64,000 bases of DNA from Tubulanus polymorphus (lineage: Eukaryota; Nemertea; Palaeonemertea; Tubulaniformes; Tubulanidae). Numbering within the stretch: position 1 is the first letter of the stretch; each line of letters starts with the position of its first letter. The stretch spans positions 9,166,850-9,230,849 of the forward strand of contig NC_134029.1 in the NCBI RefSeq assembly GCF_964204645.1. The letters are read 5' to 3'. The translations under genes and the position numbers were made by a program. Positions 1,384-49,309 of the stretch are shown here, in pieces. The notes beneath the pieces were generated by a model. That model did no database searches and was not told the DNA's origin. It saw only the letters and a list, made by a program, of their open reading frames with translations.

Positions 1384-1674
1384 TTTGATTAATCCTGTCA
1401 AATCATAATTCCTTGATAACAATTATTATTTAGCATCTTAAAATTATTTAGGAGGAGCTAATCCTTTCATATGCTCGTGGCTTTAGTTACTCGGTATGGT
1501 TTATTGCTAATAGTATGTGCTGTGATCACATATTTTCTACATCGTCAATTTTTCTTTGTTTTCATTGATTTTTTTGTGTATACATATGCGTACTTTGTTC
1601 ATAATGAGCGAAATTTATTATGTAACGGTGAGTGCCGTCGAAGTATTACTATCACGCTTCAATTCCACTAGCAG

Positions 1675-5175: not shown

Positions 5176-5455
5176 TTACTTAAGTAGCTTGAGACCAGCA
5201 TTTACAAATCTAGCGAGTTTAATTAATATATTGTTATTTACAGCATTAAATAATTGTGACATTTTAAAAGTGTTTGGTCTATTTACATAAAAAGGTGTTA
5301 AGAAAACTCTTCGTATATTGTATAGTTTGGAACACTCAAAAAGAAAATGGAATTCATCACCGATTTTGTTAAGACTACAATATGTACAAATACGTTCGTT
5401 TCTATCAATATTTACATTGCTAAGTTTGTTTGCATCTAATTTACGGCTATTGACT
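5176..5455 (-). pseudogene. Antisense fragment: C-terminus of a second LINE
   Basis: On the minus strand this stretch reads through about 93 codons to TAA at 5176. It contains RNERICTYC, then DEFHFLFEC, an RRVF stretch and a terminal LLK. The CxxC...H...C arrangement is typical of the C-terminal tail of many invertebrate LINE reverse transcriptases. Nothing upstream continues it, so it is a 5'-truncated remnant. It lies head-on to the 3' end of the intact LINE and comes from a different family, because that ORF2 tail lacks this Cys/His motif. Confidence 0.75.
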
Positions 5456-5507
5456 GATTACTAATGACGCTAACTAGCGGTCATAATTTGTACTATGTAT
5501 ATTATAT

Positions 5508-6077
5508 AAAAATTCCGTGCAATATACCATGCAAAAAATATATTGCTTCGTTTCTGCGTCCGCAAAAACGAAATTTACCGCGCAGAAACGAAGTTCGTTT
5601 CTGCGCCCGTTTTGGCGAGTTTGAGCGCGCGGTGATTTCTCGTTTTTGCGCCGCGCAAAACGAAGTCTGCGTGGCGCAAAAACGAAATTTACCGCGCAGA
5701 AACGCGCTAAAACGAGTGCAGAAACGAACTTCGTTTTTCGAACTTCGAACTTCGCCAGGGTTCATCTCGTGATACTAATTAAAACGAAGTTCGTTTCTGC
5801 GCTCGTTTTAGCACGTTTCTGCGCGGTAAATTTCGTTTTTACGCGGCGCAAAAACGGACGCAGAAACGAAGTTTGTTTTTGCGCGGCGCAAAAACGAGAA
5901 ATCACCGCGCTAAAACGCGCCAAAACGGGCGCTAAAACGAAGTTCGTTTCTGCGCTCGTTTTGGCGCGTTTCTGCGCGGTAAATTTTTTGCGCCACGCAG
6001 AAACGAAGCAATACATTTTTTGCATGGTATATTGCTCGGAATTTTTTTTTTAAACTTGGCCCTAATCAGCCACCATA
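5508..6077. mobile_element. Foldback element with AACGAA-word inner repeats
   Basis: Arms at about 5508-5558 and 5996-6046 are near-perfect inverted copies, each holding GCAATATACCATGCAAAAAA or its complement. The interior is built from short words around AAACGAAGTTCGTTT and TTTCTGCGC in both orientations. It includes two direct copies of a roughly 50-bp unit (near 5781 and 5936). The right end runs out to CCTAATCAGCCACCATA at 6077, which almost matches the end of another foldback at 19665-20202. The matching left terminus is missing. No coding potential. Confidence 0.7.
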
Positions 6078-7601: not shown

Positions 7602-7876
7602 TTAAATATCAGCACCTGCGTTGTCATAGATTTCGGTGAATTCCGGTAATGCAAACTCTTCCCGCCCGCCAGCAGACGGGGTCGCTTGTGAAATCCTTCT
7701 CGTCGACGGGGCGACGCTGATCATATCCGGTTCAATGCGTCGTCTGTGTTGCGTGTTGCTGCACAATATTACTAACAACAGTATGAAACAGCCCAGCGAT
7801 AACAATATCGCCCAAACGATCAAAGCTATGAACATATTTCTGTTGATAAACGTTGATTTATAATCAGATTGCGCCC
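7602..7876 (-). CDS. Giant gene exon 49: transmembrane helix and tail
   Basis: The last exon encodes a short extracellular piece, a hydrophobic helix starting near MFIALIVWAILL, a basic stop-transfer QHRRR, and a tail of about 52 residues ending GADI. The tail has an IYDNAG tyrosine motif and several Ser/Thr next to Arg. A single span with the N-terminus outside follows from the signal peptide. Confidence 0.88.
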
Positions 7877-10800
7877 CTAAAAGAAAACGATATATTCACT
7901 TACTCATCTGAAATCTATCGATAAACATTCGTTACTAAACCCAAGACTAACAACGATTAGTCTCGAAAACTAATCCAAAACCCCTTAGAGCGAAATGAAA
8001 TTGATAAGAAATTTCACAACGAAAGAAATCGGTCGCACGAGAATCGTTGTACAGGGACAACAGGATAAGAGACAATTTTGAGCCTGAGCTTTTTATCTTA
8101 CTCTTTCACGTGTCCAGATTATGGCGCGCCAAAGCGTCACAAATCCGAGATGTTATAAATTCATTTTCTGTTCAAGACGCCTTTCCGTTCTAGCATACCA
8201 TATGTAGATTAACTTACCTGTTGATGGTTTATTATTTTCGTCCTCGGATGGCGCGTAGCACGTCGACGTGCCTTCAAAATTCATACAAATCTCTGATGCT
8301 TTGCAACGACTTGGGGACTCGCATTCATCTATGTCTAAAAGAAAATAACGAAATCGCAATTTCATGAGTATTTACATTACTTACTAATATGTAGTATCTA
8401 TATAGTAAAACAAAAAGGAATAAGCCATTATTTGCATGTAAAAGCTTAGGGCAGGCATTTTGATTTTCATATTCTATTTCAGAGTGTTAAGCATTTCATT
8501 TCAAATGATTACCGGTGCATGTTTTATTGTTGTCGGATAACGTGAATCCCTTGCCACAACTGCATATCGGTCTACCTTCCGAGTGACCACACGTTCTCGT
8601 GCAACCGCCATTATACATGTTGCATTCGTTTACATCTACAAATGCACGTAAATGCAAAAATATACATTTCAAGTTCTGTTGCAGACTTCCCCGCAACCCC
8701 TTGCCGAGGAGAAAGCTTAATTGGCATTTACCTAAACAGGTTTTTCCGTCCTCTTGTAGTTTGTATCCGGGATTGCATTTACATTGAAACCAAGGAAACT
8801 GATCTATGCATAGATGGTCGCATCCTCCATTGTTGTTACCACATTTTGTCACTGAAAAATTTGAGAATTCGATCAGTGTATGTAAATCATGATTATTAAC
8901 TCAATCAAGTAATCTCGATATGATAAGTGCATCGAACAAACTGTTGTAATTTATCAAATAAACTAGAAATAAAAATAGATAAATGAATAAATATATAAAA
9001 CCTCTATACCTTTGAAAGCTCCAGGCGGCCCTTGTTGGCCAAACGGACCCGTAGCACCAGTAAATCCATCGTCACCTGGGGGCCCTTTGTCTCCACGTTT
9101 GCCTTGTGTACCGCGATTTCCCGTAACGCCTGCAAGACAATGATTGAATTATAGTTCATCGAAATGTTAGTGCAAAAACGTAACTAATCGGATTAAAAGT
9201 AAACCAGTTGGATAAACTAGGGAGTTTGTCGTACTTCCCTAAATACCACCAACTCTTATCTAAGCATGAGCTAGGAAATATAATTTTACCTTTTATTCCA
9301 GTAATACCCATTGGTCCAGCGTTTCCCGGTGGTCCGGGAATACCCCTCGAACCTGTGACTCCCTTTTTACCAACAGGTCCTTGGTTGCCTTGTTGGCCAT
9401 CTATACCCGGAGGTCCGATTGCACCCTGATCTCCGGTCTGTCCCTTCGGCCCTTTTATTCCTGCATCTCCTTGTTCACCTTTAACGCCAGAAGCACCCTA
9501 ATATATACAGGAAAAACAAATGACAATCAGTAAATGACGCATTGGCAATTGCACTGTCAGTAATCGAAATAAATGCTGAAGTTTCTGTCTGGATTACCTG
9601 TGCCCCCGTAGATCCACCGGGACCGTCCGGGCCAATACCTCCTTGTACACCGGAAGCTCCGGGCAATCCTTGGGCACCCGCATCTCCAGTTGCACCGGTT
9701 GCTCCGGGGCCACCAATAGGAGGCAGTACGTATTCAGAACCTAATGTACAAATCATATGATAATCAAAACCAAATTTTTTCACATTTCCCATCAATCTTT
9801 TTTTCTAGTATTTTTTTTTACTTTTTATTTGTATTCCCAATTTAACCAAAATATATTTCTCGCAGTCCACTTTCCTTTTTCTCGCATAGTTCAACTCCTT
9901 AATCGATTTTATTTCGTCATAAATTTAGTGTATGTTAAATCATCTTCCGTCCTGACTTTTTTTGTAAAACGTGAATGAAATCCGAAGAATGAAATCCGTT
10001 GAGTTCAAACTCACTTATATCGGCGTTTATCGGGTACAGTTTTGTGTAGGAGATGCCGGTCTCTTGTAAAACTTGACCTTCAGTGGGTACCTCTTCGTTT
10101 TTCAGATTACGTATCTCGATGACGTCCGAATTGGGCGGCGGGGGAATATTCAAATACTTGAAAGTAATGGGGTTGTCACCGATGGTTGTAAATCCAATAT
10201 AATCGCCAGTTTTCACAGTTATTTTGTTCGGCGGATAAACCTGAAAAACATGACCAGTATTCTACTAACTCACAAAAAAATAATGCATACTCACGACTGA
10301 TAATTATTCTGTGATACAATCAAGGTTGTAAACAGTATGTCACAAATGCAATTTCAAGCTCAATGTGATCTTCATCATGCATTCTACACGCTGTTTTGAA
10401 ATTAGAGATCCTTGCATAATTTACGACTGATCTCTCAAATATTTTGTAAATTTGCTGATGATTTCTCTGGGCAAGTGAAATTTTCAACGAATTCGACTTA
10501 TCTATCGCTGGGTAAATACCTATCAAAAACTGTTCACTTTTTTGCTACAGCAACATTTTCACGGGGTTAGTACATATCTTTTTATGTACTACGCTTGTTA
10601 GAAAACGTTTCGTACCCTGTATTCACGCGGCCCCGAGGGTGCAGAAAACGGCACTTCGCCGACCAGAGCGAAGTATTCGCCTTGTCCAACATTCACCGGG
10701 CGCCAGATTTGCAGATTTACCGACTCATTATTGGCTAGGTAAGCGTTGAATCTCTGTACGAATCCGTCGTTCGGTATCGGTTTTCCGCGTACAATGTAAG

Positions 10801-13800
10801 ACTGAATGATGCTTGGAGCTTCATTCGTTAACCTCGAGGATGTGTCCGGGTTTCCAACTCGCACGGTCGATAAAGTGGGTCGTTTCAAATATCGTGAACC
10901 TGAAAATACACGTATTTGAAATCGATGTGAAATGATATTTTTTACGATAAAAAATACCATATACGGCACAAGGAAAAAGCGTCACCCTCTCAACGCACCT
11001 ATTTCAACATTGGCTTGGAAGTCGGCATCCTTCACTAGTTTTCCAGTAGGAAAGACAGAGCCCCCGACTACCGGGTCGGCGCCGATCACGTCGACAGTCG
11101 TAATCTGAGAAACCGTTTGAAGCTTCGCAAAAATCGGGTTCCTGTCCGTTATCATGAATCCAAATTTGTCACCTTTCTTAACGGCTATTGCGGCACCTTC
11201 CGCTGGATATACCTTTTACGGAAAAGAAATAATCAATGAAAGTACCATTTACAGTAATTAAGTCATATACATTACCAGCGAGTCTCACATTCTTAGATTT
11301 CTAATTTACGCCAGTCAAAATACCGTTTATAAACAGTCTGCAAGTGAGGGACCAAACGTAGTTGGAAAAGCCCCTTACTTTGCAAAATCAGGCCACAAAG
11401 TCAATTGATACAATTTCAGGCCCGTACCCCTAAAATTTTCAAAGTGCCTGCCAAAACTGCAGTGTCAAAACATTTTGGTCAAGATTTTTCGAAATTTGGA
11501 TACAATTTCCATGTTTTTTTTTATTGAAAAGTAATCCATTCCCAGATGATCTATTCACGTACCGGAACACTTCATATCTTAAGATCTGTCCTTTTTCACG
11601 GCGAGAAGTTATGAGGTATATTGTTAATCTGAACCAAAAGCGACTGTACGACAACTGTGATTCACGCGGTATCACGAAACGTCTTGGATAGTTTCTTGCG
11701 ATGAAAAAGATACCAAAAGTTGGATGGAACTTTTCAAGATCATCATGTCACGACTTACCGTATATGAATCGGGCGGTTGTTCTCTGGAATTAGGCGTAAA
11801 TGGCTGCTCTGCGACTAGCTTATATTGATTTGGGTTCGTCGATTCCAGCCGATAAATTTGGAATTTCACAGTCTCGTTCAGATTCATGAAGCAGTTGAAT
11901 CGATACACGTAACCGTCGGGAAGGTCCGAGTCCTCGTATATGTATATCCGTTTGCCAGGTGCCGCAGTTTCGTAACCGCCGCTGCTGACTGGTCCGCTGG
12001 TATGGCCGTGCGTGGAAACTTTCAAAGAAAAATACAGTGAATATGAGAAAATGAAACCAATGAACTCAAACATACGAATAGAAAACAGCGCCGAAACTCG
12101 GGAGTGACATTAGACGCACTGCAATGAAAGTCATAGAATGAAAAATCAGCAAGATATCTTCAGATTTTAAATCTCATTTCAAAGAAGGCGTTCGAGCGCA
12201 AAATTCCTTTGGAATTAGAATATTTTGGGAAATTGTCTTTAAGAATTACGAATGTCAAGCCCCAAATTTTTTTCAAAGACAAAACTTGACGACGGTTATA
12301 ATATTACATCGCTCTCACGTCTCATTGTTGCAATTTTGAGAAATGAAGTCTGAGTTTCGGTAGTTTGAATCCAAGGACCGTCGAAAAATGATAAAACACG
12401 CATCACAAATAGTTTTTTAGAAAAGGGAAAAATGACCCAACACAAAAGTACCCGAATAAAAATGGTGGCTAGCAATCAAAATATTGCAGTCTAAGTTTTA
12501 CATACAGCCAATTATTCGACTCCATTCGAATCGTAAAAAGTAAAATCTTTTCCAGAGCCGTCGGAAAGAATTTTTCAGTGGCGAGGCTTATTTCTGAAGG
12601 GGGTCTGGGGGCCCTCCGCTAGAAAAATTTTGAAAATTCAATCGCCGGAGATGCGTTTTGGGGCCATTTCACGGTCTCATTCACAGAAGCATGAGAAGCC
12701 GTGAGCCAACCACCTAGTACAGAGAACGACGAGCTGCTACGCGGTACAGCGTGCTTTGAAAAATATTTTGTTAAGCAAAAAGTGGGGCGGCTTTGTCCGT
12801 CACTGTTTCCTGTTTTCAGAATGATAGTTCGATTGAGTTCATTTTTGTTCAGAACTGAGATGACGATATACTTCCCACATTATCACGTCAATATTCGATG
12901 AAGATATAGCATTTTTGGCCCATACCAGAAAATGTGTAACTTACTTGTTGTATTTGGTTCGGTTAAAGGCACATCCGCTGAAAATATCGAGAGCTCGTGA
13001 AAATATGTACGATGAATAAGCTGATACAAAATAAATACATTGTAGCAATAAATAAAATATAATTCGAATGCAAAAAGATGAGATGATTCGAAGGCAATAA
13101 TTCCTTCACTAATACGTACAGATATCGACTCGAACTGCGAAACGGTAACCATCCAGCCTATTGACCACTTCTACACTACTTCCGAGTTGAGGTCCGCCGG
13201 TCTTGGTATCTAACGTTTTCATTTTGCTTCCGCTATCGCTATCGTAACCGGGAACGTACACGACAGGATTTGAAGCAGTTCCTGACGAGAAAGCCAGCTT
13301 ATCCCCGGCTTTGATAGGAAAATTTAGAGTCGTGCCAGCTTTTACGTACGTATCGATGCTTCGCCTTTGTCTCCTTGGCTTGATACCGTATTTTGAATCG
13401 CCATATACCTATAGTTTTAAGATTCAAGCAACTGCCTTATTCTTTTTTAAATTCCGACTCAAAAACAATCCCTGACGGCCAAATATGTTCGCAACACAAA
13501 TAATTTAAGACTTAAAGGACGTTAGGACCAATTATGGGCTTTTGCCTGGTCTCATTTTGAAGCTTTCAATTATAAAGGTACCCATGGAAACCTAATATCT
13601 AAATTAATCAACTCATCTATGAACGATGGCATTTACTGATCAAGGAAGATACGTTTCGACTCCGTGTTACGCATATACGACAAACTGAATTACTACTGGT
13701 CAAGCGGAATAGTTCTATGGGTCTACTGGTGAGCGCGCTTACTTTCAACGTACTAGACCAGGGTTCGCTAGATTTGATCAGATGCAGTTCAAAGAAAGTG

Positions 13801-16800
13801 ATTAAGAACAATAATTTGTGGCAACTGTTTTGCGCTAATTTGAACCGTGATATTTATCCTAATTTTGACTTAAACTAATTATGCAGTTAATATTTACCAC
13901 GAAAGTGCCAGGAAACGGTGCTCTAAAGGGCTGGTCGAAGATCAACTCGTATTTGTTTTTATCGACGAGGTCAGGGCGATAGATCTGCAGACGTACTTCG
14001 TCTGATGTTTTCACCGTTGTTGTAAATCTATACAGGTACCCGGCCGGTAGATCAATGGAATCAAAGATATCCACGAAGAATCCAGTTTCTCCCTGTTTGG
14101 CCGCGGGGTCGTTCAGCGATATCGATGGATTTCCGGCCGAAGAAACTGCAAAAAGGAATTGATATCGAATATGTTAATTTTCAATATTCTCAGGGGGATA
14201 CGACGGGCCGTATACGGGTTATTGGTGGCTGATTCGGGCTATATCGAAAGAAATTCGTACCGTATAAGTTATACATTCTAGATGTAAAAATATTCACCTA
14301 GTGAGAAAGACAGAATCAAGAAATCGGCTACCATCCTCTTAATTTAAACGAATGTGTACTTACCTAAAACCGTTCCTTCAACAACGGGAACTTCCGGTAG
14401 AGTAACATTTGATCCACCAGGTGCTGAAGTAAATCATAGAAAAATTCCTATGCAGATTAAGACACCGAAAATACCTCGATGATATACTGTATGGGTGATT
14501 TTTCAAGGTTCCTTCTGCATTAACTGCCGAAATTCCATCATTGCTGTCATTTTTAAAGTAATAGAAGACGATAGTTACCTGCGACTAATATGGACGAAAG
14601 AGTGACCAATAACGAATATTTGAATGCGTTATTTTTCTCCTTGAATTTCATTTCAGTTTGTCCGATAGAAGTTCTGTCAGTAGGATTCGCGAATGTGAAA
14701 GTTAAAACCGGTGAGGTCTCCTGCCCAGGAAGCCCGTAGCTGGCTATGGGACTCTGCGTTCCGAGACTGGTAAAGCCAAGCATATCTCCATTTTCAACTG
14801 GCATTACTTTGTCGGCGTAAACCTACCGAAAAAATTAATATTTTTCAAATTTAATCGGAAACCTAAAAAATGATGGTGTATTTCGCATTTATCTTTCATA
14901 TAATCGCTTTATTATTTCATTCTTATCTTTAAAAACTTACGGTAACGACGCCTGTAATTTGTGGTGTATACGTCATCTCATTAAGAAGTGTCAAGTTTGT
15001 GCCGTTCGGGCGCCATATCTGAAATGCTACCGGCACACCTTTCGTGACGTAGGCATTGAAAGCGAGTAGATACCCGCCTGTCAGGTTCGAATTCTTCAGT
15101 ACGACCGTCTTATAGCCATCTCCGAACACTCCCTGCAATAGCTGATTTCCGCCTCCCGAAACTAAAGAGACGTTTGAGATACATTCGATTAACATTTCCA
15201 ATGTGAAGCCTAGTCAGTCTCAGCGCATCTTACAATTCTGAGTCTAATAAAATCGGAAAGGAAATAAAAACTCCGGATGCGATAGTTACCTGTTGTGAAT
15301 ATCGGCGACATTGTAATCGAAAGGGAATATTTGAATGCATTGTTTTTTTCCTTGAATTTCATTCCAGTTTGTCCGACAGCAATTCTGTCAGTTGCATTCG
15401 TGAATGCGAAAGTTAAGACCGGCGAGGTCTCCTGTCCAGGTAGCCCGTAGCCGGCTATGGGACTCTGCGTTCCGAGACTTGTGAAACCAAGCATATCTCC
15501 ACTTTCAACTGGCATTTCTTTGTCGGTGTAAACCTACAGAAAAAAATCAAATACTTATTAGATTCAATCGGGAACCTAAAAAGTGATTGCATATTTCGCA
15601 TCTAAGTTGTTCGCGTCATTTCTATCTTTCAGAACTTACATTAACAACGCCTGTAATTTGTGGTGTATACAACATCTCATTAACAAGTGTAAAGTTTGTG
15701 CCGTTCGGGCGCCATATCTGAAAAGCTACCGGCACACCTTTCATGACGTAGGCATTGAAAGCGAGTAAATACCCGCCGGTCAGGTTCGAATTCTTCAGTA
15801 TGACCGTCGTATAACCGTCTCCGAACACTCCCTGCAATAGTTGATTTCCAGTGGCCGACGCTAACGGAATGTTTGAAAAAAATGATTAAAATCTTTCGCA
15901 CCAAGCGTATAATCAGTTTCTGCACTACATACAATATTAACTTCAATAGAATGATAGAAGATCCCACACAAACTCGCGATACGATAATTACCTGATGTGA
16001 ATATCGGTGACTGTGTAATCGAAAGGGAATATTTGAACGCGTTGTTTTTCTCCTTGAATCTCAATTCGGTTTGTCCAACAACAGTTCTGTCAGCAGGATT
16101 CGGGAATGTGAAAGTTAAGACTGGTGAGGTCTCCTGTCCAGGAAGGCCGTAGCTGGCTATGGGACTCTGCGTTCCGAGACTGGTAAAACCAAGCATGTCT
16201 CCACTTTCAACTGGCATTTCTTTGTCGGCGTAAACCTACATAAAAGAATCAAATACGGTACTTATTCCATCGGAAACCTAAAACGTGATGGCGTATTCGC
16301 ATCTAGTTGTTCGTTTCATTTGTGTTTCACAACTTACGGTAACGACGCCTGTAATTTGTGGTTTATACGTCATCTCATTAACGAGTGTGAAGTGTGTACC
16401 GTTCGGGCGCCATATCTGAAACGCTACCGGCACACCTTTCGTGACGTAGGCGTTGAAAGCGAGTAAATATCCGCCGGTCAGGTTCGAATTCTTCAGTATG
16501 ACCGTCTTATAACCGTCTTCGAAAACCTCCTGAGATAGTGGATTTCCATTGGCTGACACTAATGGAAAATTTGGAAATAAAATTTTTGTTAAAAATTCAT
16601 CACGCGAAGACCTTTGTCACTTTTAACAAAATAATAAATTTACCTTCTATGAACATTGAAGACATTGTAGCCGAAAGAGAATATTTGAATGCGTTGTTTT
16701 TCCCTTTCAATCTCAATTCAGTTTGTCCGACAGCAGTTCGGTCGGTCGTATTTGTGAATGCAAAGGTTAAAACCGGTGAGGTTTCCTGTCCAGGGAGTCC

Positions 16801-19800
16801 ATAGCTGGCTATGGTACTCTGCGTTCCGAGACTTGTGAAACCAAGCATATCTCCACTTTCAACTGGCATTTCTTTGTCGGCGTAAGCCTTTAAGAAAGTG
16901 AAATGGAAGGCGTATTTGATTCCATCAGGAAGTTACATTATCCTGAGCCAGGTTTCACAAACACTTCGTCGGTTTAATTTCTTCATTAGTTCAGTGTACA
17001 TGTGTATGCTGCTTAAGTCGACTAAAAATGTTATTCCCTTTTGTGAAACCCGACATACGGCTTTGAATTTCATTGTATAGTTTTAAATGCAAAAAGTGAT
17101 GACGTCATTTCTTTTCATAAGTTGATGGTTTAAAACTTACGGTAACGACACCTGTGATTTGTGGTGTATACGTCATCTCATCAACAAGTGCAAAGTTTGT
17201 GCCGTTCGGGCGCCATATCTGAAACGCTACCGGCACACCTTTCGTGACGTAGGCATTGAAAGCGAGTAAATATCCGCCGGTCAGGTTCGAATTCTTCAGT
17301 ACGACTGTCTTGTAGCCGTCGCCGAAAATGCCCATCAATAGGTGATTTCCGTTGGCCGACACTAAGAAAATGTTTGGAAAAAATATGTAAAAATTCTATA
17401 GTCTGTTTCATTGCTTTACACAATTTTGAGTCTCGTGTAATAACAAATAATCGTCTATCGCTAGAAATATCGATTGAGCTCTTGGAAGTTTTCTGATAAA
17501 TTGTACCTTCATGTCCGAACATTATGCGGCATTCAATTATGTAACGTGATTACTTACTACTGGCTACTGTCTACGAATTACTTTATAAGTTCTGTTCGTT
17601 TATTTTCAAATCGATTCGAAATTTGTGAACGACAAGACCAGGTTACAGAAACATTCGTACTATACTTACATATAGGTGCAGGCTGTGTTGGTACCGGGGA
17701 TGTAGCTGTTACCGGAGCTGTCTGTGTTGAACTCGCTGAAGTCAGAAAAATATTATATTCATCAATTCATTCATTCGTTAATTCATTGATTAAATATTTC
17801 ATTCATTCATTCATTTGATTTGATAAATGTTATTGTTTTAAACCGGGTTCAGGGAACACATTTTTGTTGATTCCAAACATTTGCCGTCTCAAACACAGAC
17901 CACTTACCTTTAGTAGTGATGGGAGAAGAAATCGGCGTTGTTACAATATTGGTTGTCGTGGCTACAAGATGTATTACGAATGAATAGAATGAGCTATCAT
18001 AAACTAATGTACATTGTATCATAACGTGGAGAGAATAACCTCACAAATCTTTTTCCATAATTATACAGATGATTGTTATATGTTATGGACTCTGTGTTTT
18101 AAAATGAATGTATTTCTTTCGCTTGGCATAATTCAACATGAATAAACGATTAATACTCACGGCAAGGTGGATCTTTGTAATCTGGGCCTGCAAAGTAGAT
18201 AGTGATAGTAGCGTATCAGGTAGTGATAATGGTAGTAATGATGTAAGTTCTGATGATCATGGTAATAAAAGATAAAAGAAGTGATGCGGCAGATGGTAAC
18301 AGTTGTGGTTGGGGTAGAATGGGGCGATGGCAGTGGCAATGAAGGTAGTACGAGTGGTAGTGCTATCACAAAAATTAGAATGAACCGGAACCGAAATTTC
18401 CAATTATGTACTTCGATTTACACAGAACACGCTGTAAACTCAACCGTCGATATCACCAAAGCACTTCGACTTTCGATTTCAAAATCAACCCCCACTTTTA
18501 CCTCCCGACAGGTGTGCACGTGGGTTTCTTACTGACACCAAATCAAACGAAATCTACCAACTGAATAAATAAAAGGGTCAATCCCTATCATTGATAAGAT
18601 TTAAAAAGATTGAATGGTAGAAGCACCGTGGTTATAGTGACTACAGGAATTGGTAGGGCAGAGGTAGGGGATTAGGTTATGGGTAAGCGGATTGGAACAA
18701 TATAGACGAGTAAATACACTGTGTGATCGTGATAATGTGAGTGGCCAACGGGATTCATGGCGAGCCTTTCAGCTTTTCAATTCACATGGATAGACACTTA
18801 CACAATTCAGGATGCGGTGCAATGTCTACGGACAGAGACAACTTATAGGTCAGGGCACTGGTCGAGATGCTAACGATCTCGTTCAATTTTGCCATGTCCT
18901 CAGCTTTATCAAATTGACGGAACACTGTCGTTTGCGGTTCGATTCGAATTGCGTATGATCCATTTCCGAGACTGGAGCCACCCAAGTGTTCACCACCTTC
19001 TAGTTTGATAGGATTTGACCAATCCATTTTGATCTATAACAGGAATTCAAACAGAGAGGGCTCGTTTAGATTCAAATACATGGTGGAAAACGGTTATCTG
19101 TAAAAAGGCGACACCTACAGTATGCTCCCCAGGAGTTTCAAACTGAAACGGTACATCAGCTATAAGTTTGTAGCTATATTGCGTCTTAGTTGGTCTGTAG
19201 ATCTGGGCTTTGGCTGCGTAGTTGGTCTTAGAGTACACATTCATCCGACAGACGTAACCAGCCGGTAGAGATTCGCTTATTATTACCATTGAAAAATACC
19301 CTGCCGTCACCGTATCACCTGACTGGACGACGGGATTACCAAATGTTTGAACTAGAAATGATGAATGGTAATATATAAATCGACAAAATTAATGGAAATA
19401 ATTCTCGCATATGTAACGGTGACTTGAATCAAACACGTGTCAGAAAATATATCATAGAATCTAAGATTGTATTCCCCTCAGACCGATGACTGTAAATATC
19501 ATTTCACCATTAACACTTGGTCATCAGTTTCTTGGGATAAACATTTTATTATATCAACTCTGTTTTCATTAATTTATCAGGTCTACATTGTTCGTTACAT
19601 TCTCCTTAGATTGCTTATCTTATCCATTTCCTTTCACTTGAACTATTGCAGACATGCGCAAAAATATGGTGGCTGATAAGGGCCATAGCGTAAAATTCCT
19701 GGTATGTAAATGAGGGCGCCAGAACGCAAAAAACGAAAAAAAAACGTCCAATTTTCTCTGAAAATTCGTTTTGGCGCCAAAACAAAGAATATTTAGTTTT

Positions 19801-22800
19801 GGCGGGAACTTTCATTTTGGCACCCCCGCAAAAACAACGAAAAACGTCGAAATTTCTCTAAAAATCAGTTTTGGCGCACCAAAACAAAGAAAATTACGAA
19901 CTTTCATTTTGGCGCCCCCGCCAAAACGAACTTTCAACCACGTAAAATAATTCTATATATGCAAATTACACACAGGATCAACGCACCAAATTGAAAAATA
20001 ATTTTATGGGGTTGGATGCTTGTTTTGGCGGGGGCGCCAAAACGGAAATAACCGCGCCAATACGAAATATTTTTGTTTTGGCGCGCCAAAACGAACTTTC
20101 AGTGAAAATTTGACGTTTTTTTTTTTCGTTTTGGCGTTCTGGCGTTCTGGCGCCCTCATTTACATACCATTTTTTACGCTATGGCCCTTATCAGCCACCA
20201 TACAAAAAGGATGGCATGGATTGAATTGCTGAGAGATTATGTGAACAAATGTTAAAAAGGACGGAAAGAAAAGAACAAATTTTTAGGGGAAAAAACAGTC
20301 CATTCTAGATCATGCATAATGAATGAATTTTGGATTTAAAACGATGATTGTTACTCATTTTTTTACCTTTGCCATTGGATGGAATCGGGTCGGTTGACAC
20401 GGGACAGAAACCGGGGACTATCGGCCTTGTGACGCGAGGAGGCTGAGTGGTCGATGATGCTGGACTACTAACGACCGCGGGTGTAATAGTGGATGTAATG
20501 GCAGGCGAAGTTCGTACCGGTGTTGTCGGAGGTTGTGTGGTTGGTGGTTGTGTCGGTCCTTAAAAAGGAACATGATCAAGACGGTCGAATAAATCAATTG
20601 TGTAAAAGATATGAGAAATAGACTTCATTTGTGCAGCGTGTTTTACCCGGGGTTGTGGTGCAGACCGGAGCGGTTGGCACGACAAAGTTGGAACCTGAAA
20701 TGATAAGTCAACAACTACTGAGTTTCGTATTTTGGTAAAAGGAATGATAACCAGAGGCTTTTGCCATCATTTTTTTAAGTGGCGATCTTTCATCATATAG
20801 ATTGTAGAGGCTATCTGACTACTAGCATTGCGTGATACAAGCTACAAAATGCAGTGAAGTTGGCATTTTACTATGATTTCTTACTGAGAGTTACTTGCAC
20901 GTGGCAGCCAATATGCGGCGCTGTGTCGTCACACGAATAACCTCTATATACATGTAGTGTTCAAATTGAAAATTAAAACTTACAAACGGTCGGATGAGAA
21001 GCTACCTCAGCCTTTATCATATATTTATAGATAAGTGCACTCGTGGAAATTGTATAGATTTCCCCGACTTGAGGAAATCGAGATGGTTTATTCGTTTGTT
21101 GACGAGTATATGTGCTGTATTGTCCTGATGCATCGGGCTGCCAAGCGATACTTGTTATGCCGTCTTTATTATAGAATCCAATCTTGTCACCGTCTGCGAT
21201 TTCTATTGGGTTGTTATTCCAATCAACATCTACCTAATAAGGAACGTATCTTATCCGACAAAGATGTTACAAAATAAAACGCAATCTACCAAGATCGAGG
21301 ATGACCTAAAGATTCGGATCTATCCTGATTGCGATACTTACGGTATATGGTCCGGCAGACTTGGCTGTGAAATCTATATTACCGACGAGAAGCCATGGCA
21401 AATTCTCCGAGTCCTGATTTGGAGGAGCTCGCCATATTTGCAAAGATACTGCGCCTGGTTTCGAGATCCATATCTTAAAGTTGCAGAGCCATCCCTTGCT
21501 CAGGTTTATAGTATACAATATAGTGAAAATGTAGCCGTCTGTTGCGCCAATTCCTTCAACGATGTCGGCTCCATACGATGTGACTGAAAACAATATTTCA
21601 ATGAAAGTAAACCTTCGGCAGAAGAGTTGAGGTACCCGGTAGATGAATAACCATAAAAGCATTCAACTGCGTAAATAGGTTTGTTTATAACGAACGTTTT
21701 CAGGAACCTTCCCCTCGTTAGGTACATAGTCGTACCTGATGTAACTGTACTTGTACCTAATGAGGGGAAGTGTTCCCGAAACATTCGTTATAGATAAAAT
21801 TTTGAAAATGAGATCTTATTGTGTTTACGCTTATATGGTTATTCAAATAGTTCAATCAGTCCAGCTAGACTATGCCCACTGGAAAAGAGTCTGAAATGCT
21901 CAACAATCTGACACTTTCAAAATTCCATACCACGTGAACATATACCGAAACCTTAAAACTCACTGAAATCATAGAATGTCATGAGCTATAACTTTGCAAT
22001 TGAATTGGGTACAAAATATCCATAGATCCCAATATAGATGGAAATACGACGTAATTCCACCATCCAACGCCCCCTGGTGAATGTATGCAGAAACAAGGGA
22101 CCTCGAAAATCAGCACAATCATATAAAGCATCATATCTACAATTATGCTAGCGATTGTGATTACAAAATATGTATAGGGGCCAATATAAATTGAAAGATT
22201 TAATACTTTTCTATATTCAACTCCCCCTGGTGGTGAGAACGATACTCTGGGTGACCAGTATTCCATGTGAGGAGATGTGTCCTGTGACAGATATCAAGAC
22301 TATAAGTTAAAACATAATGATATATTTTCCTCAAAAACCATTCTCCAGATATGAGCGATAACTGATGGAACTAAGATGGCTGCTGGTTGCATCAAAATCG
22401 ACTAATCGACTAAACCCGTCTGATATGTAAAACTCTAATTTCAATGTAACATGATAAACCATGTAGAAGCTAGAGGCCTAAGAATTCAGACCTAAAATCA
22501 CCTTTTTGAACAAAAACGACACAATACAGCCATCTTGTTTCTCGATCGACCCAATTTTTCCTGTGATACTAAGCCCTAGGGATACATATTCGCATGCAAA
22601 ACCTAAGAAAATAGAAAATAAAAACGCTCAAAATTGCTGAGATTTTGCCGAGCAAAATATTCGGCTTGATTCAAATTGCGCCAGTATTGGACTGTAGAGT
22701 CGGTTAGGGTAGATATACAAATTAACCAAATATCAAGACCATACATAAAAGCGTATTGAAAACTTCCCAAGAAAACTGTATTCCGTCTTTCTGTCTACAA

Positions 22801-25800
22801 ACAGACAGACGGACGGACGACGGACAAGTATAGGACATAAGTCCCAAGTGGGCTAAAAAGATTGGCAGAGAATATGACAAAGAAATAAACAATGAATTTG
22901 ATTGGATGAGCAGGTTATAGTCGTAATTTTACTCGATATTTCTCTAATTGATAATTTCTTATCATTATAACGCGTACCGTTTGCTCCGGTAGGAGTGGAT
23001 TCCAAAAATATCGAGTCGACGGTTCCACACCTCTTCGGTCCAATTGTTGTAGCTGCACACGGTGGAACATAACTTGAACCTTTTATTTAAACAAAATAAA
23101 TTTAGACACAGGTATGCATGCATACGTGGTTTTTTTCAAAGCCACTTAATTGTTGTAAACTTGTTCCACAAAATTCATGAAATGTTTTTACAGCTGAACT
23201 TACATTTTTGCGGATAGTTTGCAATGACGATGGAAACCGAAAATCTATAAGTAGCTATGGATTTCTCAATGGATATAGTTTGCCCTGTGGTCGGTAACTG
23301 TCCCGACAGTTCCGTGTAGAATGTGCGGGCGTTGGTGTCAGGGGAAAATCCAACGGATCCCGTATTCGGCATCATTATTCCGATGTATTCTCCGCCTTTC
23401 AGTTTTATTGGGTTGTTCCAGTCTGTTACTGAAATCTAATTCAAACCAGAAAATATGAGTGCATGGGTAATACTCCAGGAAGTAAACTGCTTAAATGCTT
23501 GATAATCTTTATTATACATCTAAACTGAAATCTTGATTAACATTTCAGGATCAAAGCACCAAAATGCCGATTAGCAATTACCTCGTGTTCTCCTACGCTG
23601 GGTGCAGTGAATTCAAGATCTTGAATCAGCATCCTCGAGGTAGTCAATTGATTGTTGCCGGTATTTTTCCAAATCTGGAAATGTGCCGAGACGTTTTTGA
23701 CCGCCATATACGCGCTAAAACTGCACACGTAGCCCTCGGGTAGTGGGTAAGAAGCTAGCACATAAATGAAAGAACCGCTCTGAGAAGGGTTTCCTTTCAC
23801 GACTGGATTGCCATGTGTGGACACTGAAATATCATTGACATTTATCAAAAAGTCATTTTCCATTTGTCAGTGTATGCGATGCCAACAATGATCTTTTTGT
23901 CATACCTTTGGCATCCACGGGAATGGAAGGCGACGAACACGTAGATGCGGTGGATGAACTACTTGGATCGGTTCCTTGCGGTGCAGTACTGGCAGGGGAT
24001 GTTAACTGAGTTGGTTTCACTGTGCTGCTGGCTACATTTGGAATTTTGGTTGTACTAGCCGCCGATGGGGTTGAAGGTAAAGCTGTGCTGGTAAGTATCG
24101 TTGTGGGTGCCATTGCAGTAGTAGCCGGAGGTGCTGCACTGGTCATCGGTGTTGTTGAAAAGGTTGGCGCAGGTGAAGTAGCTGAAAGAACAGGGAATGA
24201 ATTTACGTCACTGAAAATAGGATCGAAGCTTTTTAGTCAACAAATTGCCAAACGAAAGAACCAATTTGCATCAATATGCATTCAATTGAAAATTCTCAAC
24301 GGATTTTTATCATGCTTAGCAAAATATGTAACTTCGTTATCGATGCCGAATACTCACGACAAGGGGGATCCACATAGCCTTTGCCTAAAATAAATGAAAT
24401 TAATAAAATGATCTAAATTGGAAAACAAACTTGGTAAAATGTGTTATCCATCCATATCTACTTACAAAGTTTAGGGTGTGGTGCAATATTGACCGAAACT
24501 GAAAACATGTAAACTAATGTAGAAGTCGATACGGCAACGTTTTGTCCCACTTGTGGTAGACTTGTTGAAAATGTATACTCTCTATAGTAACTAGGTTGGA
24601 AGGATGGTGCATAAGCAACTGAGCCAGACTTTAAACTTGTCAAACCTAAATATTCACTACCGCTTAATTTGATCGGATTGCTCCAATCTACCGGAACCTT
24701 GAATATAAAATGAAACAGCCCCGATAAGTAAAGCTAAAAGACATCTTTTTCGTTTACAGAATGATAGAGAGAAACCAGTGAGTATAAATTCGAATGGTAG
24801 TTTATCATGTTTAAAATCTTGAACTTACCTCATGAACACCGGGTGTTTCAAACTTAAATTCTCTCTCTGCGAGTAAATTCCAAGTAGGTACTGCGCCTTT
24901 GAATATTTGAATTCTTGCCACGTGATTATTCTTGGTGTATACATTGAAATAACACACGTACCCAGCCGGAAGTGGTAAAGATGTTAACACGTAAGTAAAA
25001 TAGCCATCGTTTACTAGACTGTTTGCATCGACAACCGGATTTCCAACATCTTTGGCTGGAAATGAACATTTAAATTGTTTAAGCTAAAGAAAATAAACCT
25101 AAAAAAGAAAATAAACTAAAAACGAATGAGCTATATTACCTGATTTGTTAGGTGGAACGGGTTCTGTTGAAACTGGACATGTTTTGCCGTTAGCTGGGGT
25201 CGTGTTAATTGTAGAATCTGTTTGAGTTGAAGGGTTGGAAGTAGTGGTAGCTGGTTGAATTGAAGGTTGCTCTGTGCTCGCTGTTCTTGATGTAGTGGCA
25301 GCCGGTTGACTTGAAGGTTGTGCTGTACTCGCCGATTGTGTGGAAGGTTGTGTTGGACTCGCCGGTGTGGAAGGTTGTGTTGTACTTCGTGGCTGTTCAG
25401 ATGAAGCTGGTTGTGTTGTGCTAACTTGCGTTAGAAGAGTTGGCGCAGCTGTGGTCGTTGCTGAAATGGAATGTAATGGAAGAAAGCGGTGATGAATATT
25501 TCAGTTCTGTGTGTAGGTTGACAGTAACTTGCTTTGGCGCACTAGACGGCTCAACACGGGTTTTCAAAGAGGTTTTTTTCTTAGAAAATATCAACCACAA
25601 TGATAGATTTTGATCAGACAAAAATAACATAATTGTACAAAACGACCTGAAACGAATTAATACTCACGACACGGAGGATCGACGTAGCCTTTACCTAAAA
25701 CAAATAAAACCAGTTAGAATAGATAAAGAAACTTCGCAATATCACAATATCAACCCATATTTACTTACAAAGTTTAGGATGCGGAGCAATATTGACAGAA

Positions 25801-28800
25801 ACTGAAAACATGTAAACTAATGTAGTAGTCGATACGGCAACGTTTTTTCCCACTTGTGGTAGACTTGTTGAAAATGTATACTCTCTATAGTAACTAGGTT
25901 GGAAAAATGGTGCATAGGCAACTGAGCCAGATTTTAAACTTGTCAAACCTAAATATTCACCACCGCTTAATTTGATCGGATTGCTCCAATCTACCGGAAC
26001 CTTGAATGTAAAATGAAACAGCCCCGTTAAATAAAGCTAATAATAGAAATCGTTTTCGTCTACAGAATTATGGAGAGAAACCAGTGACTATAAATTCGAA
26101 TGGTAGTTAATCATTTCAAAATTTTGAACTTACCTCATGAACACCGGGTGTTTCGAAACTAAATTCTCTCTCTGCGAGTAAATTCCAAGTAGGTACTGCG
26201 CCTTTGAATATTTGAATTCTCGCCACGTGATTATTTTTGGTGTATACATTGAAATAACACACGTATCCAGCCGGAAGTGGTAAAGATGTCAACACGTAAG
26301 TAAAATAGCCATCGTTTGCTAGACTGTTTGCATCGACAACCGGATTCCCAACATCTTTGGCTGGAAATGAAAATGTAAAGAACAGAAGATTTCAATATTC
26401 AATGCCACATGAAGAACATATTGATAAGGCAATGAACTTAAAACTCACCACAGTTATAGAACATGTCTCTAGCTACAATTATGCAATTGATTGTGGTTAC
26501 AAAATGTGCACCAATACAATATGAAAATACTAAGTGATTCAGCTATTTAACACTCTCTAGTGACCATATACAAAAACCAATGACCTTGAAACTCATCACA
26601 ATCATGGAATATGGCACAAGCTACAATTTTGCAATTCATTGTGGCTACAAAATATTCCTGGGTACAAATACAATATGAAGATAGGAATTTATTCGGCTAT
26701 ATAGCACCCCCTGGTGACCATATGAGAAAAACCAATGACCTGAAAACTCTTCACCATCATAGAACATGTTACGAGCTACAATTCTGCAATTGATTTTGGT
26801 TACAAAATATCCATAGGTATCCATGTAAATAGGAAAACTGTATATAATTCAATATTCAAATCCCTGGTGGCGGGAACGAAAACCTGGTTAACCCCAATAT
26901 CGCGCGACGAGATGAATACTTCGAGAGTGATACTATCTATCAAATATCAAAACTATAAGTCAAAACCTGTCGATATTTTCTACAAAATACCTTTTTCTAT
27001 CTACAAATGACGACTGATGAAACTAAGATGGCTGCTGATTGTGCCTCGCTTGGCTGATCAAAGAATCTGTCTGATATATTTAAGAGCCGTTCTCAAAGTA
27101 TAAGCAGCAAGAATTTCAAGGAAACCAAACCATTTGAGAGCTACAGGTGTCGGAATTCAGCTGGCCGGTTCCCCAGTTGAGACTTAGGTCCAAAAATGGT
27201 CTTAAATCTTAAGACTGGTCTTAAGTTGTTAGATCGGCTATAGAACTTAGATGGTCTAAAATTGGTCTTAAGTCTAAGCTATGATAATGGAACTGGGCCC
27301 GGGCAAAAATGACTTTTTGGGCACAAGAAAGGCACACGATTGCCATCTTATGTCCGATCGACCCAATTTTTCTCATGCTAATGCATCATGGGGGAGGGTT
27401 ACAAACACATGTGGAAGATCAAGATAATTGATCAAAGCGATTTCAAAATTGTCCCTTGAAAACTACACAAATGTGTAAAAAGTGCTGATTTTGGTGGACA
27501 AGAAATGGCTGCCAGTCGGCCATCTTGATTCTGATCGGGCCAGTTTCCGTGAAGAAGATGTAGCTAGGTTAGATGCATGTATAAACCAAAGATCAAGACA
27601 ATACATTGAAGCGTCTTCAAACTCCCCAAAATAGCTGCATTCCGTCTACGGACAGGCGGACGGACGGACGGACGAACAGACGGACGAAAAGTGAACCCAA
27701 TAGCTTGCTGGGAGTCGCAAGTGGGCTAAAAAGAATGTAGCTATTTTACCTGATTTGTTAGGTGGAACGGGTTCTGTGGAAACTGGACATGTATTGGAGT
27801 TGCCGTTAGCTGGGGCAGTGGAAATTGAAGAATCTGTTTGAGTTGAAAGTTTGGAAGTAGTGGTAGCAGGTTGACTTGAAGGTTGTGCTGTACTCGCTGG
27901 TTTTGCAGTAGTGACAGCCAATTGACTTGAAGGTTGTACTGTACTCGCTGGTTTTGCAGTAGTGACAGCCGATTGACTTGAAGGTTGTGCTGTACTCGCT
28001 GTTTTTGTAGTAGTGACGGCTGGTTGACTTGACGGTTGCGCTGTGCTCGCTGGTTTTGTGGTAGTTTCAACCGGTTGACTTGACGGTTGTGCTGTACTCG
28101 CCGATTGTGTGGAAGGTTGTGTTGTACTTCGTGGCTGTTCAGATGAAGCTGGTTGTGTTGTGCTCACTTGCGTTAGAAGAGTTGGCGCAGCTGTGGTTGT
28201 TGCTGAAATGAATGGTAATGGAAGAAAGCGGTGATGAATATTTCAGTTCTGTGTGTTGGCTGACAGCAACTTGACGGCTCAACACGGGTTTTGAAAAATT
28301 TTTTGTCAAATGTCAACCACCATAATAAATTTTGAAACCGACAAGAATAACATAATTGTACAAAAAGACCTGAAACGAATTAGTGTTTGATACTCACGAC
28401 ACGGAGGATCGACGTAGCCTTTACCTAAAACAAATAAAACCAGTTAGAATAGAAAAGGAAACTTCGCAAAATCGCAATATTAAACCATATCTACTTACAA
28501 AGTTTAGGGTGTGGTGCAATATTGACAGAAACTGAAAACATGTAAACTAATGTAGTAGTCGATACGGCAACGTTTTGTCCCACTTGTGGTAGACTTGATA
28601 AACGTGTATATTCTCTATAGTAACTAGGTTGGAAGAATGGTGCATAGGCAACTGAGCCAGACTTGAAACTTGTCAAACCTAAATATTCACCACCGCTTAA
28701 TTTGATCGGATTGCTCCAATCTACCGGAACCTTGAATATAAAATGAAACAGCCCCGAAAAATAAAACTAAAAGACATCGTTTACAGAATTATGGAGAGAA

Positions 28801-29436
28801 ACCAGTGAGTATAAATTCGAATGGTAGTTTATCATGTTTAAAATTTTGAACTTACCTCATGAACACCGGGTGTTTCGAACTTAAATTCTCTCTCTGCGAG
28901 TAAATTCCAAGTAGGAACTGCGCCTTTGAATATTTGAATTCTTGCCACGTGATTATTTTTGGTGTATACGTTGAAATAACACACGTATCCAGCCGGAAGT
29001 GGTAATGATGTCAACACGTAAGTAAAATAGCCTTCGTTTACTAGACTGTTTGCATCGACAACCGGATTCCCAACATCTTTGGCTGCAAGTACAAATAACG
29101 AGTTTAATTTTAGGGAATGTGCTCTTGATTATACCCGTACATTATGGTAACTACAGAATGTACGCTTAAAATCCGAAAATGAGTAAGCTGACGATGTTAC
29201 TTTACCTGATGTGTTTGGTGGAACAGGGTCTGTAGTAACGGGACACGTTTCAGTTCCTGTAATTGTTAATACCGAAAATTCAATTATCATTTTATTCATA
29301 CGTACAGATGCAGATCGATGATTTTGATTTGAATTATATGATATTTCCAATTACCGTTTGCAAATGCATTCAAAAACGTGATCAACAGTAAAGTGCGTAT
29401 AAAAAGACTATAGCACCGCGAAAAACGAGTTGCCAT
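7602..29436 (-). CDS. Giant modular type I membrane protein (49 exons)
   Basis: 49 exons, all with GT/AG boundaries and consistent phase, join into 9,141 nt encoding 3,046 residues. Order: signal peptide; 13 copies of a 150-180-residue beta-rich module, each on two exons; Ser/Thr/Pro linkers after modules 1-6; collagen helix; three EGF domains; transmembrane helix (about 2970-2994); a cytoplasmic tail of about 52 residues. Modules share an LP.GY...F...Y stretch, a QIWRP-like strand, GD.(L/I)GF and a closing FS(V/L)S strand. I do not recognise the family; a jelly-roll sandwich is a guess. Inferred role: a large trimeric cell-surface glycoprotein. Exon coordinates are in the block entries below. 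Caveats: no transcript seen, and alternative splicing of modules is possible. Confidence 0.85.
8218..8851 (-). CDS. Giant gene exons 46-48: three EGF-like domains
   Basis: One domain per exon: 8732-8851 (TKCGNNNGGC, then C.C), 8513-8635 (DVNECNMYNGGC) and 8218-8334 (DIDECESPSRC). The second and third open with the D-(V/I)-(N/D)-E-C pattern of calcium-binding EGF. The third lacks its last disulfide loop: after STCYAPSEDE it runs into an acidic linker. All borders are phase 1, the standard arrangement for EGF exon shuffling. Confidence 0.9.
9010..9740 (-). CDS. Giant gene exons 43-45: collagen triple-helix segment
   Basis: Exons 9598-9740, 9290-9497 and 9010-9129 carry 13, 23 and 13 Gly-X-Y triplets, 49 in a row with no interruption (about residues 2688-2834). 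This predicts assembly of the protein as a trimer near the membrane. The segment is preceded by EYVLPPI and followed directly by the first EGF domain. The antisense strand shows long open frames that are by-products of the Gly/Pro codons. Confidence 0.92.
10015..14145 (-). CDS. Giant gene exons 36-42: modules 11-13
   Basis: Module 11: 13898-14145 and 13120-13408. Linker: 12945-12977 (33 nt). Module 12: 11759-12018 and 10999-11212. Module 13: 10616-10899 and 10015-10240. These are the most divergent copies, with the landmarks PAGYLYRF, LQIYRP, YVYRFN and LQIWRP. Module 12 has one unpaired Cys (YRFNCF). The second exon of module 11 encodes PRRQRRS (Arg run at about residues 2255-2259), a good match to a furin-type cleavage consensus. 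If used, it would split the 3,046-residue chain about three quarters of the way along. The 927-bp intron before module 12 holds no recognised gene. Confidence 0.82.
14364..17735 (-). CDS. Giant gene exons 26-35: modules 7-10, near-identical array
   Basis: Short Thr/Pro linker exon 17670-17735, then four exon pairs: 17141-17361 with 16644-16887; 16338-16558 with 15992-16235; 15640-15860 with 15290-15533; 14941-15161 with 14579-14822. The following linker exon is 14364-14423. Every first exon is 221 nt and every second is 244 nt. Shared landmarks are SNLTGGYLLAFNAY, FQIWRPNGT and GDMLGFTSLGTQS. The pairs lack the Cys residues of modules 1-6, and no linkers separate them. The introns are also recognisably duplicated. 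This is a recent tandem expansion independent of modules 1-3, and such arrays are easily collapsed in assemblies. An NLT sequon in each copy suggests N-glycosylation. Confidence 0.87.
17757..17817. repeat. (ATTC)n-rich tract in intron
   Basis: Imperfect ATTC/TTCA repeats between linker exons 25 and 26 of the giant gene. The same motif forms the tail of a LINE fragment near 36584. Confidence 0.7.
18161..24384 (-). CDS. Giant gene exons 13-26: modules 4-6 and linkers
   Basis: Linker after module 3: 24358-24384 and 23906-24181 (Ser/Thr/Ala-rich, ending near IPVDAK). Module 4: 23582-23823 and 23204-23435. Linker: 22978-23079. Module 5: 21342-21583 and 20984-21233. Linker: 20647-20694 and 20367-20558 (PTQPPTT repeats, then CPVSTDPIPSN). 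Module 6: 19119-19351 and 18802-19033. Linker: 18161-18187, 17908-17961 and 17670-17735; the last two exons lie left of this block. These modules are diverged from 1-3 but keep the paired Cys (GYVC or GWLC, then HPELC, HPTVC or PQKC) and the DPPC or VPPC tag after the module. The 19665-20202 foldback element sits in the intron before module 6. Confidence 0.82.
19665..20202. mobile_element. Foldback/MITE element with 6-bp target duplication
   Basis: Both ends begin TATGGTGGCTGATAAGGGCC in inverted orientation and match for about 60 bp. CAAAAA flanks the element on each side (19659-19664 and 20203-20208). The interior alternates GGCGCCAAAACGAA words and their complement, so the whole can fold into a long hairpin. 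It lies in a giant-gene intron between exons 20367-20558 and 19119-19351. It has no coding capacity. Confidence 0.8.
21961..22860. repeat. Intronic repeat, copy 1
   Basis: Two or so copies of a roughly 155-bp unit (near 21961 and 22119) with a motif like TTGTGATTACAAAATAT and a CCCCCTGGTG core. A segment with AACTAAGATGGCTGCTG, a GGAC-rich run (about 22803-22830) and GTGGGCTAAAAAG at 22849-22861 follows. The same series occurs at 26448-27735. It fills the giant-gene intron before module 5. Confidence 0.65.
24466..29082 (-). CDS. Giant gene exons 3-12: modules 1-3 and mucin-like linkers
   Basis: Module 1: exons 28856-29082 and 28499-28730. Linker: 28398-28424 and 27750-28202. Module 2: 26134-26360 and 25769-26000. 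Linker: 25668-25694 and 25140-25460. Module 3: 24829-25055 and 24466-24697. The three modules are nearly identical (PAGYVCYFNVY; RIQIFKG; HPKLC). Each has one Cys in the GYVC strand and one at its end, just before a 27-nt exon coding GKGYVDPPC. The 151-residue linker exon 27750-28202 repeats an STAQPSSQ-type unit about six times, so it is mucin-like and probably O-glycosylated. Its counterpart at 25140-25460 is shorter (107 residues). Even the intron sequences of the three copies are similar, so duplication was recent. Confidence 0.85.
26448..27735. repeat. Intronic repeat, copy 2, with three tandem units
   Basis: Units start near 26450, 26597 and 26753 (period about 147-156 bp), each carrying an AGCTACAAT...TGCAATT..TTGTGG block. 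Then comes a downstream part related to 22200-22860, a (GGAC)n run at about 27654-27687 and GTGGGCTAAAAAG. It occupies the giant-gene intron before module 2. A small inverted-repeat insert lies inside at 27165-27303. Confidence 0.65.
27165..27303. mobile_element. Small inverted-repeat element nested in intronic repeat
   Basis: The ends CCGGTTCCCCAGTT and AACTGGGCCCGG are roughly inverted copies. The inside is rich in GGTCTTAA and its complement, giving a hairpin of about 140 bp. It interrupts the larger repeat at 26448-27735. Confidence 0.45.
29206..29436 (-). CDS. Giant gene exons 1-2: signal peptide and CPVTTDPVPPN segment
   Basis: Exon 1 (29355-29436) starts at the ATG at 29436 and encodes 27 residues with a basic start and the hydrophobic core LLLITFL, ending FANG at a phase-1 splice. 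This is a convincing secretion signal. Exon 2 (29206-29256) encodes GTETCPVTTDPVPPNTS. The same Cys-Pro-Val-Ser/Thr motif recurs before modules 2, 3 and 6, marking it as the standard preface to a module. No clear TATA box was seen upstream. Confidence 0.85.

Positions 29437-43909: not shown

Positions 43910-49309
<5,400 letters not shown>

What the first reader, a model, noticed from the sequence alone, without database searches (positions are those of the whole stretch)
7602..29436. A 3,046-residue, 49-exon surface protein built from 13 copies of an unnamed module
All 49 hand-placed exons keep frame across GT/AG junctions, giving signal peptide, 13 modules, linkers, collagen, EGF, membrane span and tail. 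The module (LP.GY..F, QIWRP, GD.(L/I)GF) is one I cannot assign to a named family. The architecture is striking and may be undescribed.
Basis: partly seen in the sequence, partly recalled or inferred. Interest (0 to 1): 0.78.

Follow-up and report, generated by a model that had tools for sequence, protein, structure and literature searches.

The report
Giant membrane protein of lectin-like modules
An unnamed animal carries a very large gene for a membrane-anchored cell-surface protein that strings 13 copies of an uncatalogued lectin-shaped building block on a collagen and EGF stalk, and at least 34 more dispersed copies of the same block occur across the same genome, so it looks like a widely used but unlisted extracellular domain.

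Summary
The finding is confirmed. On the minus strand, 29436 to 7602, I rebuilt one open gene: 49 exons and 3,044 residues (50 exons and 3,051 residues with one doubtful 21-nt exon). It encodes a signal peptide, 13 modules with Ser/Thr/Pro-rich linkers, 49 unbroken Gly-X-Y triplets, two EGFs plus a truncated third, a membrane span and a tail. Each module is two exons with a phase-0 intron in the middle and phase-1 ends. Nearly identical modules evolve at dN/dS 0.15-0.31. The module has no significant match in Pfam, NCBIfam or PDB sequences. It is not unique: the same genome holds a 5-module paralogue with the same layout, a tandem neighbour without modules (32275-34465), and at least 34 dispersed copies, some beside sushi, ShK, C-type lectin, kringle or EGF domains. 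[quoted passage not shown] Most likely it is a collagen-trimerised, type I membrane adhesion or recognition receptor. Ligand binding is inferred. No transcript or eukaryotic protein database could be searched, so novelty beyond this genome is open.

The parts
7602..29436 (-). whole gene, ATG 29436 to stop 7602; 49 exons (50 with doubtful exon 21736-21756)
29355..29436 (-). exon 1: start (A at -3, G at +4) and signal peptide MATRFSRCYSLFIRTLLLITFLNAFA
   Evidence: hydropathy
28499..29082 (-). module 1 (two exons)
25769..26360 (-). module 2 (two exons), 94% identical to module 1
24466..25055 (-). module 3 (two exons)
23204..23823 (-). module 4 (two exons)
20984..21583 (-). module 5 (two exons)
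18802..19351 (-). module 6 (two exons)
16644..17361 (-). module 7 (two exons); modules 7-10 are 80-83% identical and abut without linkers
15992..16552 (-). module 8 (two exons)
15290..15860 (-). module 9 (two exons)
14579..15161 (-). module 10 (two exons)
13120..14145 (-). module 11 (two exons)
10999..12018 (-). module 12 (two exons)
10015..10899 (-). module 13 (two exons); groups with the collagen-side module p5 of the paralogue (96/96 support)
27750..28202 (-). mucin-like linker exon (about 55% Ser+Thr+Pro) with a 51-bp, 17-aa tandem repeat at 27849-28101
25140..25460 (-). mucin-like linker exon
23906..24181 (-). mucin-like linker exon
20367..20558 (-). Thr/Pro-rich linker exon
9010..9740 (-). 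collagen helix, 3 exons, 49 unbroken Gly-X-Y triplets
   Evidence: (PF01391, 2.4e-21)
8732..8851 (-). EGF domain 1
8513..8635 (-). EGF domain 2
8218..8334 (-). truncated third EGF (profile positions 1-32 of 43 of EGF_CA, four Cys)
7602..7876 (-). membrane span (hydropathy peak 3.05) and cytoplasmic tail of about 50 residues
32275..34465 (-). tandem neighbour gene: signal peptide, 49 Gly-X-Y triplets, three EGFs (third truncated), membrane span, tail; no modules

Best explanation
This is a single functional gene for a type I membrane protein. Shown from sequence: a signal peptide, 13 modules in an N-terminal block spaced by mucin-like linkers (1-6) and a compact block (7-10, then 11-13), a 49-triplet collagen helix, EGFs, a membrane span and a tail. 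Inferred: the collagen helix joins three chains, so each molecule presents up to 39 modules on a stalk. Each module folds as a galactose-binding-like beta jelly roll (modelled on homologous single-exon copies). Most likely the modules work like lectin or carbohydrate-binding modules: many weak sites give strong multivalent adhesion to glycans on microbes, particles, neighbouring cells or matrix. The module number grew by recent triplication (1-3) and an older quadruplication (7-10).
For: Open frame, phase and splice pattern; purifying selection; strand-specific module hits. A 5-module paralogue and a module-free neighbour share the collagen-EGF-membrane end, and module 13 groups with paralogue module 5. 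Profile-profile match of window modules to dispersed single-exon copies: probability 98.5, E 2e-15, 136 columns. AlphaFold pLDDT 90.5/pTM 0.87 and 85.9/0.84. Structural neighbours: Cwp84 lectin-like domain Z 11.7, rmsd 2.9, 144 residues; phage tail-fibre domains Z about 10-11; acetyl-xylan esterase PbeAcXE N-terminal domain Z 9.0; fucolectin Z 7.1; many CBM6/32/62. Dispersed copies lie close to sushi, ShK, C-type lectin and kringle exons.
Against: No ligand, expression or trimer data. [quoted passage not shown] The window modules themselves were not folded, since they are split by introns. Conserved module residues could not be mapped to a binding site.
Confidence: 0.45

Rival explanations
1. 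A structural spacer or glycocalyx protein: the modules and mucin-like linkers simply build a long, hydrated, protease-resistant rod, and ligand binding is not their role.
For: Mucin-like linkers with 55-59% Ser/Thr/Pro and 26 N-glycosylation sequons; a coding tandem repeat; modules 7-10 abut without linkers; the jelly roll is also a plain scaffold in other proteins.
Against: The same module occurs singly close to recognition domains such as C-type lectin, sushi and ShK, which a pure spacer would not explain.
Confidence: 0.25
2. A homophilic or heterophilic protein-protein adhesion receptor: modules bind other protein ectodomains or matrix proteins, not sugars.
For: Large repeat ectodomain, EGFs, a membrane span and a short tail are typical of adhesion receptors (general knowledge); discoidin-type jelly rolls such as DDR2 bind collagen (listed at Z 5.5).
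Against: No direct support; the top structural matches are a lectin-like domain, phage tail-fibre domains and carbohydrate-esterase domains.
Confidence: 0.2
3. Two separate genes (modules 1-6 and modules 7-13 plus stalk) were joined in the model.
For: No transcript; modules 1-6 carry conserved Cys and linkers, modules 7-13 largely lack both.
Against: The paralogue keeps modules of the 1-6 class and of the 13 class in one compact gene. The CPDYKDPPC exon and two linker exons bridge modules 6 and 7 in frame.
Confidence: 0.07
4. The domain and the architecture already exist in animal protein databases as annotated or described families outside Pfam, so nothing is new.
For: Eukaryotic UniProt, InterPro and CDD could not be searched; uncharacterised entries are likely.
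Against: No hit in Pfam, NCBIfam, PHROGs above noise or PDB; paper searches found no description.
Confidence: 0.3

Closest known systems
Lectin-like domain of Clostridioides difficile Cwp84 (PDB 4d59, 4ci7; PMC4089489)
   Same: Beta jelly-roll fold over 144 residues, Z 11.7, rmsd 2.9; Z 10.9 for a second subfamily.
   Different: 5-9% identity, no sequence match; bacterial, next to a cysteine protease, binds calcium; no collagen or EGF.
Discoidin/F5-8C, CBM6/32/62, fucolectin and PHR-type jelly rolls
   Same: Same broad galactose-binding-like fold (Z about 5-7).
   Different: No profile match to any of their Pfam models; alignments cover only about 100-127 of 165-172 residues.
Transmembrane collagens (MACITs XIII/XXIII/XXV, PMC4678570; collagen XVII; SR-A/MARCO/CL-P1 from general knowledge)
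   Same: Collagen helix in a membrane-anchored protein.
   Different: Those are type II with the collagen C-terminal to the span; here a signal peptide is N-terminal, the span is C-terminal, and EGFs lie between collagen and membrane.
Tandem neighbour at 32275-34465 and paralogue at C5:23.03-23.04 Mb
   Same: Same collagen, EGF, truncated EGF, span layout; the neighbour has exactly 49 triplets too.
   Different: 0 and 5 modules instead of 13.
Membrane mucins
   Same: Ser/Thr/Pro-rich tandem repeats.
   Different: Linkers only; the bulk is folded modules; collagen present.

Membership tests
Any Pfam-A family (for the module) | Match at or above the curated cut-off | tested here: not met
   best are Filamin 0.03 and PKD 0.0033, both below cut-off
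Discoidin / F5-8 type C | Sequence match to PF00754 | tested here: not met
   not listed at E 1 among window modules or at 0.1 among 57 copies
Discoidin / F5-8 type C | Galactose-binding-like jelly-roll fold | tested here: inconclusive
   same broad fold: DDR2 Z 5.5, factor VIII entry 7kwo Z 5.8, at the level of common arrangements
Cwp84-type lectin-like domain | Fold | tested here: met
   Z 11.7 and 10.9 for two models of single-exon copies; not folded for the window modules themselves
Cwp84-type lectin-like domain | Detectable sequence homology | tested here: not met
   profile search of PDB sequences finds none
Cwp84-type lectin-like domain | Bound calcium | not testable with these tools
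   models carry no ligands
Transmembrane collagens of the MACIT type | Type II orientation, N-terminal cytosolic part | tested here: not met
   N-terminal signal peptide and C-terminal span; definition in PMC4678570
Collectins / C-type lectin receptors with collagen | C-type lectin domain | tested here: not met
   no Lectin_C hit on the modules or on the collagen-to-tail part
Collagen-containing protein | Gly-X-Y repeat | tested here: met
   49 triplets, PF01391 2.4e-21
EGF-domain protein | Six-Cys EGF | tested here: met
   two full, one truncated
Collagen-EGF-membrane family of this genome | SP, (modules), collagen, EGF, EGF, truncated EGF, span | tested here: met
   three genes; the signal peptide of the 5-module paralogue was not located

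The most novel reading that the evidence does not exclude
A previously uncatalogued, mobile animal lectin-like domain family, expanded to more than 50 copies in this genome, is the recognition unit of a new class of type I membrane collagens. The number of modules varies between paralogues and by recent duplication, as expected of a diversifying immune or self-recognition receptor.
Probability: 0.3. Interest if true: 0.75.

Novelty: new variant of a known kind. Interest (0 to 1): 0.55.

Why it matters
An extracellular domain used more than 50 times in one animal genome, often close to well-known recognition domains, has no entry in Pfam. Naming it would annotate many 'uncharacterised' surface proteins at once, and the three related genes (0, 5 and 13 modules) give a clean system to test what module number does. 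A collagen anchored in type I orientation is also uncommon (from general knowledge and PMC4678570).

Tried and rejected
Filamin and PKD hits were rejected: below cut-off and covering parts only. Bacterial or phage sequence relatives: none found (short-peptide scans of this kind find close relatives only); phage tail-fibre similarity is of fold only, so no transfer is claimed. Mobile-element origin of the inverted repeat around exon 18: no second copy found in the genome. Mitochondrial COX1 to place the species: not found in the assembly, so the phylum is unknown. Profile alignments could not be used for the genome or collection scans. Paper searches on the motif and architecture found no description.

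Full report
What is there. The gene lies on the minus strand. A dynamic-programming exon chain with simple splice and codon scores, started at the ATG at 29436, gives a 48-exon chain. Hand placement of two EGF exons that the program skipped, and corrections to the last exon, to one acceptor (exon at 22978-23079) and to one donor (8513), complete it. The result is 49 exons and 3,044 residues, or 50 and 3,051 with a 21-nt exon at 21736-21756. That exon lies in the loop of an inverted repeat, of which no second copy was found in the genome; I leave it undecided. All introns are GT-AG, there is no internal stop, the start context has A at -3 and G at +4, and AATAAA signals lie at 7317 and 7282.

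Modules. Thirteen modules of 154-180 residues are each encoded by two exons: a phase-1 start, a phase-0 intron in the middle and a phase-1 end, so modules can be duplicated without breaking the frame. Modules 1-3 are 94-96% identical and 7-10 are 80-83% identical; the rest share 19-45%. dN/dS within the two groups is 0.15-0.31, so the copies are under purifying selection. Introns of modules 1-3 are 90-95% identical, a sign of recent duplication or conversion. A profile of the modules hits 26 half-modules on the minus strand, none on the plus strand and none in shuffled DNA. Modules 1-6 carry a Cys in the GYVC-like motif and one at the end, and are spaced by Ser/Thr/Pro-rich linkers, one with a 51-bp coding repeat; modules 7-10 follow each other directly.

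C-terminal part. The collagen helix has 49 unbroken triplets; Pfam gives collagen 2.4e-21, cEGF and EGF_CA, the last EGF being truncated. A membrane span (hydropathy 3.05) and a tail of about 50 residues follow.

Surroundings. The next gene on the same strand (34465 to 32275) has a signal peptide, exactly 49 Gly-X-Y triplets, three EGFs with the third truncated, a membrane span and a tail, but no module. On the same contig at 23.03-23.04 Mb (L022/L038), beside an open frame that reads like MOCS1 (by eye), a third gene has five two-exon modules, collagen, three EGFs and a span. Its module next to collagen groups with module 13 (support 96/96), and its N-terminal ones fall with the module 1-6 class (92/94). 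So the common ancestor probably already had modules of both classes in one gene, which is the best available argument against two joined genes.

The family. Searches of the genome in which the window lies find at least 34 further copies of the module, many in one exon. Iterated profiles join them with the window modules, and a profile-profile comparison of window modules with single-exon copies alone gives probability 98.5 and E 2e-15 over 136 columns. These copies sit close to exons for sushi, ShK, C-type lectin, kringle and EGF domains (some of these hits are just under the Pfam cut-off and gene models were not built) or behind Cys-rich N-terminal parts that resemble PAN/apple (by eye, not confirmed by Pfam). 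No Pfam, NCBIfam or PDB-sequence family matches.

The fold. AlphaFold2 with 57 rows from this genome gives pLDDT 90.5 and pTM 0.87 for a single-exon copy from contig C11; a copy from another subfamily, with no window rows, gives 85.9 and 0.84. [quoted passage not shown] The first tier stands above the level expected for common arrangements (7-8). The fold class is thus known; the sequence family is not listed.

How it most likely works. Shown: anatomy, selection, family, predicted fold class of homologues. Inferred: surface display in type I orientation (signal peptide plus C-terminal span), trimerisation by the collagen helix, and multivalent binding by lectin-like modules. Sugar binding is the most economical reading given the structural neighbours and domain company, but the same fold also serves non-sugar roles, and the Cwp84 authors themselves found the usual sugar site absent in their domain (PMC4089489).

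Known or new. Transmembrane collagens described as MACITs are type II (PMC4678570), which this is not. Collectin-like receptors use C-type lectin domains, absent from this gene. I found no paper describing the motif or the architecture, but full-text search is a weak test and no eukaryotic protein database could be searched. I therefore call it a new variant of a known kind: a new domain family of a known fold in a new arrangement of known parts. Scores: interest 0.55; confidence in the gene anatomy about 0.9; confidence in the lectin-like receptor mechanism 0.45.

Noticed in passing
window 748-4611 (+): Apparently intact LINE: a 211-aa ORF followed by a 979-aa ORF with endonuclease (2.5e-7) and reverse transcriptase (3.3e-35) domains.
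   Followed up: partly
window 32275-34465 (-): Tandem neighbour gene with signal peptide, 49 Gly-X-Y triplets, three EGFs and a membrane span, but no modules.
   Followed up: yes
window 37525-40382 (-): Small secreted or surface gene with one I-set Ig domain (6.9e-6) at its end and a long exon (38142-39221) without any Pfam match.
   Followed up: partly
window 43910-48421 (-): PRDM-type gene: PR/SET domain at 47173-47442 (9.4e-28) followed by zinc-finger-like exons.
   Followed up: partly
window 19615-20240, 5450-6050: Long imperfect inverted repeats rich in TTTTGGCGCCAAAA-like units (in an intron of the gene) and another such array about 1.5 kb beyond its 3' end.
   Followed up: no
window 27849-28101: Coding 51-bp tandem repeat (5 copies) that gives a 17-residue Ser/Thr/Pro-rich unit; likely to vary in number between individuals.
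   Followed up: no
L016 and L018 (C11:7.60 and 7.63 Mb): Two genes in opposite orientation, about 90% identical in the module, carrying C-type lectin, ShK and sushi-like exons.
   Followed up: partly
G000 C6:7.818-7.873 Mb: Dense cluster of EGF-domain exons on one strand.
   Followed up: no
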